DNA from: Allomyces macrogynus ATCC 38327
Lineage: Eukaryota > Blastocladiomycota > Blastocladiomycetes > Blastocladiales > Blastocladiaceae
Direction: 5' to 3'
Assembly: GCA_000151295.1 (NCBI GenBank)
Contig: GG745363.1
Coordinates: 159,929 to 223,928, forward strand
Length of the DNA stretch: 64,000 bases
The position numbers and the translations under genes are program-made. Shown in pieces: positions 5,111 through 11,935 of this stretch (the stretch's first letter is position 1; the number at the start of each line of letters is the position of its first letter). The notes beneath the pieces were generated by a model. That model was given only the letters and a program-made list of their open reading frames with translations, did no database searches and was not told where the DNA came from.

Positions 5111-5717
5111 TTTTTCCGAAAAGTTTTGACACAAGGGGCACTCAAACGACATCACCAAAGTTTCCTTGCCATGTGCTAAACCATGAACACCATGAACTTC
5201 AGGAATCAAACACCAAACAGCTGTGTCTTTTCGAGGCCAGCCAAGTGGTGCACACGAGTGCCAAACTTTGTCATATACGTCGAGTACCTCTGCAATCAAT
5301 GTGGGACAATTGTCATAATAGCCCACTCCAACTGGACATGCCAGGAGGCTGACCCTCCACCACCTCCACAATTTGAATAACAAATACACATTGCACGAAT
5401 GGTTTCCATGCAGTGTGCGAGACACGATTAGTTAAAGGATAGGCGGTAGACTTCGCCTGGCTTGAGTTTTGTACAGACTGCTGGAAGACTGGCCAAGTTC
5501 TCTGGGCAGTGGTTCTGGGTGGTTGCTCCACTTTCTTGGGCTCTTGCCAGTGGAGGTCTTCGGTGGGTGTTGCGAGAACCTTCATCGCTTTTGTCTCTTC
5601 TCTTGGATAAAAATTCAAAGCACATGTGCGTATAAACTTAGTCACGATTAAATTTTTGACCCCTGTTGTGGTGGGCATTTTAGCCAATGATGGCAAACTG
5701 CGACAGGAGGATGACAA
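5066..5717 (-). pseudogene. Unrecognised ORF at the left end of the viral block
   Basis: Two overlapping minus-strand frames (5313-5717 and 5066-5425) probably represent one broken gene downstream of the penton gene. The downstream frame contains a CPLC pair near its end (ECPLCQNFSEK) and segments such as PTLIAEVLDVYDKVW that look protein-like. The upstream frame has EDLHWQEPKKVEQPP. I recognise no family. Its position and strand place it in the viral operon-like array. It could be a virion accessory protein or a degraded enzyme; nothing visible decides this. Confidence 0.35.
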
Positions 5718-5781
5718 CGTTCATGCACAGAATCGCAACTTCAAAGCTGAGCATTTACTATATACCATCAAAAATAAATTT

Positions 5782-6550
5782 TCAAGTCAGGAACACAAGC
5801 TGGATGGTCCAATTGTGGCCATTGAAGTCAATGGGCTGCAGTTTGTCATCACACAGCTCAAGCTCAATCTCTGTGACTTCCTCAGTGATGGCTTTTGAAT
5901 CAAAGTTATAGAATTCACTGGACGAGTTCTGGTACACAAATGACTGTCCCCAACTGCCCTGTATGTGGAAGAGATACCACAAGTGAACCAACATTGGGGA
6001 ACGACAAGTGGGTGTAGTCTGCCAGCATGGTCCCAAGGTTGGACTTGAGGTGAATCGTCTCAATGCAGGCAAGGCCAATGGCATATTCACCTGTCAGTGA
6101 GGAGCCTGTAAGTGCAGCATTCACGCTGTTGTTCTTCCAAGGCTCAGTGCCAAGTCCGAGGTTTTGGTGAATGCTATTTGGTTTGTTGCGGAAAATACGC
6201 AACTTCATGGCACTGTTAGCAAAGGTGACACGGCCAGTAGCCGAGTTCCAGGTCACAGACCACGTCCCTATCCAGTTCATTTCAGCATTGCTGTTGTTGA
6301 GTAGTTCTGTGAGCTTGTCACAGAGTGACTGAGGAGTGCAATATGCAGGGGGCACTGGAATCACAGCATCATAATAGGCATAGCCAGGCTGGCCCCGAAT
6401 ATAGAGCAGGTTATTGCTCTCAGTAATGTTGTACCAGGTGTTGGGAATCATGCCTGACACCACACAAATGCCCTTCGTCTGGATGGCGCGTGGAAGGCGG
6501 TATGAGACCCCAGTCTCCAGGTCCTTGGAGTTAATGTTGATGTATTTCAT
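5782..6550 (-). pseudogene. Penton / minor capsid protein, one frameshift
   Basis: Single-jelly-roll vertex protein of the PLV/polinton capsid. Start is the ATG at 6550 (MKYININSKDLETG), typical of these proteins. The reading frame runs to 5915, but the family's C-terminal signature lies in the next frame: EIELELCDDKLQPIDFNG followed by a W-x-I-x-L-x-F end, stopping at 5782. This hallmark, a D-x-x-x-x-x-I-D-F-N-G turn then a final beta strand, is what ties it to pentons. A one-base change near 5945 separates the two parts, by decay or sequencing error. Length when read across (about 255 residues) suits the family. It sits 3' of the capsid gene and a small ORF, a common order in this virus group. 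Call rests on motif pattern, not alignment. Confidence 0.78.
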
Positions 6551-6588
6551 GTGAGGGACTGACCTTTATGGTATCTTGAGAAAAAAAA

Positions 6589-9016: not shown

Positions 9017-10378
9017 TTATACTTTATGATGACAATTTATGTCCTGGACGCCGCCAAATCCTTGTGGGACTTGGTAGACCTTTGGTCCATGGGGTTTGAT
9101 GACACGCGCCCCATTTTGTGGAAGAGTGAAAGGAGCATGTTGGTTCTTGCAGAAATGGGGCACTGTGGCAAAGAAGTTGTTGACAGTATGTGGCTTGTCA
9201 TCCCATGGCATACGAGGGGTGGAGTTGAGTGCACTGGCAATTTGCTTGAGTGTGTCGGTTGTCATCCTCTGCTCCTGGGGTCCTGGTCCATCATCACCAC
9301 CACTGCCCTTGCTCCCATTGGTGCCAATAACTTCCACCATGTTCTGTGCCTGTTCAAGGATGCCTGACAGCTTGTTGAGGGGATTATTGGCTGACTGGTT
9401 GAGGGCATCAATGACAACCAGGGAGGGCTGACAGCTGCTCAGGGACTTTGTTGAGCATATCCTGCATTGCATACTGTCCCTCTTCCAGTGCCTCTGTGAT
9501 GCGCCCAATCTTGTTGATTCGTGCCTTGTTATCCTTAATCTCGGCATTGTTCTCAAAGTCCCACAGCCCCTGTTCAAGTGCAAGGCGCTCAAGCTGCTCT
9601 TGGACATTCTGGCTTGCAAGCTGGGCAGTGTTCCCACCCTCAGCCTTGAGCTCCATCTCGAGGCCATTCAGGGCTTGGATGAGTACATCATTTTGCTCAT
9701 TGACATTGCGGAATGTTGCCTCAATACCTTGGAAAAGTGTGTAAAGTGCTGAATCAATGCCCAGGTATGTCTGAATGATGTTCTGGATGTTCTGAATGGT
9801 TCAATGTGTTCTGGGTGAGGCTGTTTTGGGTGAGGTTGTTCTGGATGTTCTGCTGGTTCAGGGTGTTGTTCTGCTGGTTCAGGACGACTGCCTGAACATT
9901 GCCATCAACCTGTGGATTCCAGTGTGCACCCACAGGGCCAGCAACACCATTGTTGTTTTGTGCGTCTGACAATGCTTGCTCATATTCGCCTGGCATGGGC
10001 ACGACAGCAGTGGGTGGTTCCTCTGCCATTTGGCAAGCAAGGATGGGAGGAATATACATGGAAGGTACCATTCGTCACCTGGAAGTTCCCTGGCTGGGGC
10101 AGGGAGGAGAGGGGGATTAGCAGACACCATTTGCATATTGTCATGGGGCTCACCCATGTCAATGTCAGGCTGTGGACGTCCACGCGTCACCCGCATGTCA
10201 TCAGGAGGGGGTACTGCACACCTGCATTGGGGTTGGCGTCAGCTGGTCTACCTTCCTCATTGCTTGAAATATCAATGTACTCCTGCTCACCATTGCCCTG
10301 TGCATTGTTGTCCACGTCCATGTTGTCCTCACCAATTTCCGAATCTTTGATGAACTCACCATCTCCCCAGTGTTTCAT
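9017..10378 (-). pseudogene. Coiled-coil, N/Q-rich viral protein, frameshifted
   Basis: Reads as one long gene broken by several frameshifts. The 5' part (from ATG 10378) is acidic: MKHWGDGEFIKDSEIGEDN. Next come PAREL and EEPPTAVVPMPGEYEQALSD, then an asparagine/glutamine-rich repeat (LNQQNNTLNQQNIQNN, 9790-9890). A long coiled coil follows (IQTYLGIDSALYTLF..., ALNGLEMELKAEGGN, RLALEQGLWDFENNAEIKDN). The 3' part holds NPLNKLSGILEQAQNMV, a glycine/proline linker and a C-terminal domain ending near 9025. I recognise no family. Size, coiled coil and position upstream of the packaging ATPase suggest a structural or scaffold protein, or the shaft of a spike. That function is inference only. Confidence 0.5.
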
Positions 10379-10503
10379 GGGACGAAGTTGCGGTCAATGT
10401 AGGCTTCCTTGGCCCCATTGTCGAGGTCAAAAAAGGCTTTGGGCAGACCAACGTACTTGCCCAGCTCATCCAGTGTCTCAAACCATTCTTCAAAGCTGTT
10501 CAT
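10375..10503 (-). CDS. Small acidic viral ORF overlapping the next gene
   Basis: A 42-residue frame from ATG 10503 (MNSFEEWFETLDELGKYVG) to TGA 10375. Its stop overlaps the downstream start in an ATGA arrangement, which is either translational coupling in the viral array or the trace of a frameshift in one longer gene. It begins close to the divergent fibre gene (33 bp apart), so the short gap 10504-10535 probably holds a bidirectional promoter. No family recognised. Confidence 0.4.
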   Translation of the reverse strand: MNSFEEWFETLDELGKYVGLPKAFFDLDNGAKEAYIDRNFVP

Positions 10504-10535
10504 TTTAGTTTTGGGTCTAGAATATAATAATCCAC

Positions 10536-11935
10536 ATGAACACTCCACTAAACGTATTTGGGCTGATTGTGGACTGTACATATGTCACAGATGCCGAGTT
10601 GGCTACAGCAATCAGCAGTGTGGTGGCAGGCACAGCATCCACAGTGACAAACCCTCCACTGACGTCCACTGGTGGCAATGTGAGTCTGGCCTACGATACA
10701 ACCACCTTTTCCGTGAACGCCAACAACCAGCTGTCCGTGAAAGATGGCGGCATTGTAGACGCCAAGCTGTCCACTGTGAATGGCTCACGGCTGACTGACG
10801 GCTCAGCCATAAATGCAAAGGTCGTGTCACTGGACACAGCCAAAATCACTTCGGGCATGCTGCCTCTGGCTGTTGTGCTGAGCATCCCCTCATCGCAGGT
10901 CATGGGCACCTTTGGCAATGCAAGTCGCACTGGTCTGAGCGCCACCAAGCTCATTGGCCAGGTTTCCAACACGCAAATCTTGGGTCTCGACTTGACAAAA
11001 CTGACTGGGACCATCCCGCTGGCCAATCTGCCAGACATTAGCACCAAGGTGTTGTCTGTGAATGGGTCCATTGTGAGGGGAACACCATCGCAGTCCACGC
11101 TTGGGTTGGGCCAGCATTTCACATTTGGCAACACGACTGAGAGCACTAAAATGTCACCAGGTGGTGTGGTCATTCAGGGCGGTCTGGGCGTGGCAAAAAG
11201 CATCAATATTGGTGGCAGCATGAATGTGACAGGGAACCTTACAGCTGCCACAGCTGTTGCTGGCTCCCATGTGCTGACCCTCACACAGGTTAAGAGCTTG
11301 ATTTCTGCAGGCACTACGGGCCTTCTGACCCCATCATCTGCTGTAGCATTGACTGTGACGACTGTCAGTGTTTCCTTGGCGAGTGGTGCACTGACAGTAG
11401 CTGGTGGGGCAGGCATTGCAAAGAATCTGTATGTGGGTGGCAATGTGGTTGCAACAGGGAATGCCAGTGGTGCAACAGCCACTTTGGGCACCCATCTGAT
11501 GCCACTGTTGCAAGTCAACTCGCCGATTGCCACTGGGACCACTGGAATGGTCAGCACAGCAAACCAAAACACCTTTACCAACACCACTGACAGTACCAGT
11601 TTGTCAACTGGCACTCTGGTTGTGTCTGCAATGATGGTGGTGGCAGCAATGGTGTGTGTTACATTGACTTAACAACATTCACAGGCTCCAAGCTCATGAA
11701 TTTGGCATTCAACCGTACATATGGCTATGGTTAACTGAACATGGGCACTAGCAACAGTATCCAAGTCTGTGCTGGGGGGAACATGTCGATTGGAGCGGCT
11801 CCCAGTGGGACCTCGAAGCTGCAGGTAAATGGGACGGTTCAGTGCTCAGATGCCACAGCAAACAACCATGCAGTGACATGGGGCCAGGTGCAGTCGAGCA
11901 TGCTCCCCACCCTCTGCTTTGGTCAGATTATGTTC
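10536..11935 (+). pseudogene. Tail-fibre / spike-like repetitive protein
   Basis: Only plus-strand gene of the viral block. From ATG 10536 the protein is threonine-, serine-, glycine- and valine-rich with short beta-repeat units: VTDAELATAISSVVAG, then LSVKDGGIVDAKLS, LTKLTGTIPLANLP, GGVVIQGGLGVAKSINIGG and a second unit with GGAGIAKNLYVGGNVVATG. These repeats are typical of trimeric phage-type fibres and of fibre-like proteins in eukaryotic DNA viruses. The frame ends at 11672. The next frame continues with TTFTGSKLMNLAFNRTYGYG, and a third holds SKLQVNGTVQCSDATANNHA and VTWGQV, again fibre repeat. The gene is therefore frameshifted. No C-terminal knob or chaperone is visible before the sequence switches to Hsp70 at about 11.94 kb, so the 3' end is probably missing. 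Likely role is host attachment, by family analogy. Confidence 0.72.

What the first reader, a model, noticed from the sequence alone, without database searches (positions are those of the whole stretch)
5111..11935. Endogenous polinton-like virus structural module in a flagellated fungus
Seen: Walker A LGPKAAGKSTT and Walker B ILIVLDD of a packaging ATPase, a capsid-like gene, a penton with the terminal D...IDFNG...W signature, and a fibre-like gene, side by side. Known: capsid, penton and packaging ATPase together define the polinton/PLV/adintovirus lineage. Inference: a dsDNA virus infected or integrated into this zoosporic fungus. PLVs of fungi are little described, and no replication module is present here.
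Basis: partly seen in the sequence, partly recalled or inferred. Interest (0 to 1): 0.9.

Follow-up and report, generated by a model that had tools for sequence, protein, structure and literature searches.

The report
Decayed polinton-like virus in Allomyces
A zoospore-forming fungus, most likely Allomyces, carries in its chromosome the broken remains of a small double-stranded DNA virus, and more complete relatives of that virus sit elsewhere in the same genome, which makes this a useful fossil record of DNA viruses in fungi.

Summary
The finding is real. Window 4587-11941 is a decayed, truncated copy of a polinton-like virus (PLV), inserted in a fungal gene. It keeps the left terminal repeat and penton-like, capsid (MCP), packaging-ATPase, core-like and fibre-like genes, all interrupted. 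By its closest named protein hits the host is Allomyces (Blastocladiomycota). Fourteen other places in the 54 Mb genome cover about 88% or more of a 3.8-kb query at 81-83% identity, many with open frames; their other half carries an rve integrase and a primase-type helicase. Six elements with both ends measure 13.9-16.9 kb; four have exact 5-bp target duplications, a fifth after a one-base shift of its ends, one none. The capsid family matches double jelly-roll capsids, on a low-confidence model. The ends are palindromes whose stem letters differ between copies while pairing is kept. The window copy is CpG-depleted (o/e 0.37; flanks 0.96-1.23), as expected from methylation-driven decay, which was not measured. 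dN/dS is 0.06-0.07 within a second lineage and 0.11-0.16 between lineages where estimable, suggesting several independent entries. PLV genes in A. macrogynus were already mentioned in print in 2021: a new member of a known kind. Placement by a tree was not possible.

The parts
3220..4586 (-). host stretch with part of a gene interrupted by the insertion
   Evidence: 78% identical to C34 (locus L047), an unoccupied paralogous site; homology stops at 4586; on C34 a 365-aa frame on the minus strand runs across the site
4587..5147 (.). left terminal inverted repeat region of the element
   Evidence: similar to both ends of sibling elements on C74 and C48
4587..4612 (.). terminal palindrome (12-base arms), only one in the window
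   Evidence: 1 match at up to 3 mismatches, 0 in 100 shuffles; 11 of 12 paired
5782..6565 (-). penton-like gene, in two frames
   Evidence: DUF5901 E 3.2e-5; one frame of 259-261 aa in several siblings
6589..6810 (-). small protein of unknown role (90-101 aa frames in siblings)
6876..8209 (-). major capsid protein gene, broken into several frames
   Evidence: matches sibling frames of 440-454 aa; family model matches double jelly-roll capsids
8227..9010 (-). packaging ATPase gene, broken (stop and frame change)
   Evidence: Pox_A32 E 5.5e-7; Walker A and B located; 249-272 aa open in 13 siblings
9017..10321 (-). core-like glutamine/asparagine-rich protein gene, broken
   Evidence: 79-80% DNA identity to sibling ORF of up to 550 aa
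10521..11941 (+). fibre-like gene, interrupted and cut off at its 3' end
   Evidence: Av_adeno_fibre E 2.5e-5; 86-89% DNA identity to two siblings, whose frames are 580 and 650 aa
11941..11944 (.). right junction: element homology ends at 11941, similarity to a local Hsp70-like family starts at 11944

Best explanation
The stretch is a fossil insertion of a roughly 14-17 kb polinton-like double-stranded DNA virus of Allomyces. The virus carried a capsid gene set (double jelly-roll capsid, probable penton, fibre), a packaging ATPase, a retroviral-type integrase and a helicase, between inverted repeats that end in a short palindrome. The integrase inserted viral DNA into a host gene and made a 5-bp duplication (shown in siblings; for the window copy only the left end and the empty paralogous site are shown). 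Later this copy lost its right half together with the right host flank, and gained frame changes, stops and a heavy loss of CpG. Methylation of CpG followed by deamination is the most likely cause of the CpG loss (inferred; methylation was not measured). The virion functions (shell, packaging, attachment) are inferred from family and fold.
Against: The capsid model has low confidence (mean pLDDT 48.5, pTM 0.46) and stands on three sequences; the one folded is from an unnamed source and 45-46% identical to the two Allomyces rows. TM-scores of the matches are about 0.3-0.4. No relative was found in six pattern-based scans of viral contigs, so membership in a named PLV group is untested. The penton model failed (pLDDT 32.7) and its profile hit only chance rows in the PDB. 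One of the six elements shows no target duplication. The longest element (C74) contains a run of unreadable letters, so its length and gene list are uncertain.
Confidence: 0.93

Rival explanations
1. A Polinton/Maverick in the strict sense, with protein-primed DNA polymerase B, integrase and protease.
For: rve integrase, inverted repeats, capsid and ATPase genes.
Against: The replication gene is a DUF5906/primase-helicase type. In the whole genome the polymerase family PF03175 gives one match below the cut-off (23.6 of 25.8 bits, E 2.3e-4); that search rang in none of its 14 control genomes, so the miss is weak evidence. No polymerase B match appeared among the sibling proteins scanned with Pfam, but not every frame was scanned and one element has an unreadable run.
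Confidence: 0.08
2. A virophage-like element that depends on, and may defend against, a giant virus of the fungus, kept by the host for that reason.
Against: The window copy and many siblings are decaying, so this copy is unlikely to do anything now. Giant-virus genes were not looked for here.
Confidence: 0.12
3. Fragment of a giant virus (NCLDV) rather than a small virus.
For: Pox_A32 and NCLDV capsids rank high.
Against: Six elements with both ends are only 13.9-16.9 kb long.
Confidence: 0.02
4. The CpG loss comes from repeat-induced point mutation of the kind known in Dikarya, or from viral base composition, not from CpG methylation.
For: The family is repeated, and some fungi have such a process (general knowledge).
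Against: Differences at CG (0.333 to TG or CA) far exceed CA to TA (0.023), CC to TC (0.033), CT to TT (0.048) and GC to AC or GT (0.109); second-lineage loci are little depleted (0.90-1.07). A transposon-like stretch in the window is depleted too.
Confidence: 0.15

Closest known systems
Polinton-like virus genes in Allomyces macrogynus (Bellas and Sommaruga 2021, PMC7805220; passages seen)
   Same: Same host genus; capsid, ATPase and helicase reported as integrated virus. Protein AMAG_17996 of A. macrogynus (386 aa) is 82% identical to a sibling capsid.
   Different: The passages I saw give no element ends, integrase, target duplication, copy number or decay for Allomyces; whether AMAG_17996 is the gene they found was not checked.
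Algal PLVs (Tetraselmis viridis virus S1) and Tlr1-type elements
   Same: A Tetraselmis viridis virus S1 protein is among the fold matches (row 8). Tlr1 is described as a PLV variant that encodes an rve integrase (PMC11071308, passage cut short).
   Different: Helicase here is DUF5906/primase type. By sequence the capsid found only two Allomyces proteins and one protein from an unnamed source among 5.8 billion.
Mavirus and endogenous mavirus-like elements
   Same: rve-type integrase (PMC12220804 passage) and inverted repeats; target duplications predominantly 3-5 bp for the endogenous elements and 5-6 bp for mavirus (PMC8547959 passages).
   Different: No pPolB found; capsid only a distant fold match.
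Chytrid PLV of Spizellomyces punctatus
   Same: PLV integrated in a zoosporic fungus (PMC7805220 passage).
   Different: Not compared by sequence here.

Membership tests
Polinton-like viruses (Preplasmiviricota) | double jelly-roll major capsid protein | tested here: met
Polinton-like viruses (Preplasmiviricota) | A32/FtsK-like packaging ATPase | tested here: met
   Pox_A32 E 5.5e-7 for the window piece, 6.8e-9 for a sibling; weak match to STIV B204 (E 0.013)
Polinton-like viruses (Preplasmiviricota) | single jelly-roll penton | tested here: inconclusive
   DUF5901 marginal; model failed
Polinton-like viruses (Preplasmiviricota) | terminal inverted repeats on an element of about 14-40 kb | tested here: met
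   Six sibling elements of 13.9-16.9 kb (the longest holds an unreadable run); the window copy keeps one end only
Polinton-like viruses (Preplasmiviricota) | MCP or ATPase grouping with PLVs in a tree | not tested
   no reference set could be obtained
Polintons/Mavericks | protein-primed DNA polymerase B | tested here: inconclusive
   one sub-cut-off match in the genome, control silent
Polintons/Mavericks | rve integrase with 5-6 bp target duplication | tested here: met
   siblings: PF00665, 5 bp in 4 of 6 exactly; no integrase in the window copy
Polintons/Mavericks and virophages | Ulp1-type cysteine protease | tested here: inconclusive
   no protease family among the ten sibling proteins scanned, but not every frame was scanned
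Virophages | dependence on a giant virus | not testable with these tools
   needs culture

The most novel reading that the evidence does not exclude
Allomyces is host to a family of small double-stranded DNA viruses that still circulate or did so recently: several lineages entered the genome independently, swap replication modules, integrate with 5-bp duplications, and end in palindromes kept paired by compensatory change (candidate replication or integration signals), while the fungus silences them by CpG methylation.
Probability: 0.4. Interest if true: 0.75.

Novelty: new member of a known kind. Interest (0 to 1): 0.55.

Why it matters
[quoted passage not shown] The large 2023 survey of integrated PLVs left Fungi out (PMC10120064 passage). 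This genome gives a series of copies in different states, open and decayed, in a fungal genus that can be cultured (general knowledge), with defined ends, target sites and an apparent silencing signature, so questions about fungal DNA viruses become testable.

Tried and rejected
Searching the window's capsid piece against 5.8 billion proteins gave nothing; the sibling capsid gave three proteins and a profile of six rows the same three. Six scans of IMG/VR with ATPase, capsid and helicase queries found no relative; these use two to six short patterns each, so they do not show absence. tblastn against phages with ATPase queries gave no match or six chance-level ones; the helicase matched 180 phage records, at 23-27% identity in the 20 rows listed, which I read as general family similarity. 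A single-sequence model of the penton piece was useless and was not searched. Profile searches of capsid and penton against PDB sequences gave only chance rows. A move of the lost right half to another contig was considered: the right flank of the empty site was found only once in the genome, on C34 itself, so loss is more likely. One element (C55) shows no target duplication. The window's place in the copy tree is unsupported (0.112). My first guess that the interrupted host gene is a TPR protein was not borne out by Pfam.

Full report
What is there. Window 4587-11941 (the window is C40:159929-223928 of a 54.0 Mb, 75-contig genome) is homologous to a repeated element. The DNA query 5066-8900 gave 29 rows in the genome; besides the window itself, 14 rows cover about 88% or more of it at 81-83% identity, and the rest are fragments or more distant copies, some of them pieces of one copy. 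In the window the penton-like, capsid, ATPase, core-like and fibre-like genes are all interrupted.

Host. The sibling capsid's two named hits are hypothetical proteins of Allomyces arbusculus (94%) and A. macrogynus (82%). The window also holds pieces matching tubulin-tyrosine ligase and septin. The exact species of this assembly is not established.

Siblings. Two elements were read in 10-kb stretches. Beyond the fibre gene they carry an rve integrase (PF00665, E 2.1e-8), a protein of about 385 aa, a cysteine-rich protein and a helicase of about 770 aa (DUF5906, E 4.9e-18) (one copy of each scanned). The helicase matches PDB primases (best E 2.1e-13) and the integrase matches retroviral integrases (91 rows up to E 0.1, best 2.8e-5; the 60 shown are integrases or pol proteins). 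The N-terminal half of the helicase has motifs that resemble family A polymerase motifs as I recall them; this was not tested. PMC11071308 describes PolA-helicase fusions in virophages and some PLVs (passage). The integrase search gave 29 rows and the helicase search 38 rows, none inside the window. One of the two elements (C74) also contains a run of unreadable letters, so its gene list is incomplete.

Ends. Six elements with both ends measure 13,854 to 16,917 bases; the longest is the one with the unreadable run. Exact 5-bp direct repeats abut both ends in 4 of 6; a fifth (C58) shows one if both its ends are placed one base outward, which I judged by eye; the sixth (C55) shows none. In the two elements with both repeats in hand, the repeats are 97.0% identical over 369 bases (C74) and 98.4% over 571 with a further 103 at 100% (C48). 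The extreme 24-26 bases form a palindrome. In 20 of 21 termini found in the held loci, 9-11 of 12 positions pair; the remaining one scored 6. There are 18 distinct sequences among the 21, with clearly different stems between copies. No shuffle control was run for this count, the best of several loop settings was taken, both ends of one element count apart, and ends with more than four differences in the flanking motif would be missed. In the window the palindrome occurs once, where 100 shuffles gave none. The paralogous site on C34 matches the window up to base 4586 and lacks the element; there a 365-aa frame runs across the site. Its right flank was found nowhere else in the genome. To the right, element homology stops at 11941 and similarity to an Hsp70-like family, which has several copies on C40, begins at 11944. 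So the right half and the right host flank were probably lost.

Decay. CpG observed/expected is 0.37 in 5148-11941 against 1.23 in 1-4586, 0.96 in 11942-14000 and 1.15 in 14001-64000. The fall begins within about 300 bases of base 4587 and recovers between about 12000 and 12500. Over 91 pairs of 14 copies, CG differs as TG or CA at 0.333 of sites, GC as AC or GT at 0.109. Pairs share ancestry, so the numbers are descriptive. The other 13 main-lineage loci have 0.53-0.81, flanks included, so they are not strictly comparable; loci of the second lineage have 0.90-1.07. The genome has 16 matches to the C5 DNA methylase family, all over the cut-off; neighbouring rows look like pieces of one gene. 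Windows between 57 and 60 kb, with 72% inverted repeats, and between 51 and 52.5 kb are depleted too. Methylation itself was not measured.

Selection and history. dN/dS is 0.06-0.07 between the three copies of the second lineage for MCP and ATPase, with dS about 1.0-1.4; 0.11-0.16 between the main copy L007 and the second lineage in the three comparisons where dS could be estimated (it was saturated in the other three, and in those with L040); 0.13-0.17 between L007 and other main-lineage copies at dS 0.14-0.63; and 0.36-0.39 for two recent MCP pairs (which printed pairs with L007 and within the second lineage only). This fits viral genes under selection outside the genome and relaxation after insertion. 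In two elements the integrase differs by dS 0.05 and the helicase by dS 1.2, which points to exchange of replication modules. More distant elements on C58 and C73 keep the order fibre, core, ATPase, MCP, penton; there the ATPase, MCP and penton are named by alignment, fibre and core by resemblance.

Known and new. PMC7805220 states that MCP, ATPase and helicase genes were found in A. macrogynus (passage). In 10 literature searches I saw no fuller description of Allomyces elements; I read listings and passages only, and most subscription papers are not held. The find is therefore a new member of a known kind. I did not see the element's ends, the palindrome, the copy census or the CpG decay described in those passages; I looked for the words hairpin and palindrome only in PMC12220804, so novelty of the palindrome is not established.

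Noticed in passing
window 57000-60000: CpG-depleted stretch (o/e down to 0.35) with 72% inverted repeats at 57522-57837 and 59504-59818; looks like a decayed DNA transposon.
   Followed up: partly
window 51000-52500: Second CpG-depleted stretch (o/e down to 0.38); its frames were listed but not searched.
   Followed up: no
window 15511-16034 and 24358-24881: Direct repeat of 524 bases, 99.4% identical: a recent duplication.
   Followed up: no
window 43451-43970: Two head-to-tail 260-base copies, 98.8% identical.
   Followed up: no
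window 45383-46163 and 55414-56189: Inverted repeat of about 780 bases, 82.8% identical.
   Followed up: no
window 11944-13467 and 41011-42138: Hsp70-like sequences, 68-73% identical in pieces, members of a family with further copies on the same contig.
   Followed up: partly
G000:C40:134836-135159: A weak integrase match (40%) lies in an open frame reported as 5,321 aa long, outside the window.
   Followed up: no
L041 and L043: Nearly identical integrases but strongly diverged helicases in two otherwise similar elements: module exchange.
   Followed up: partly
L045, L046: Two more distant PLV lineages in the same genome with the same gene order.
   Followed up: partly
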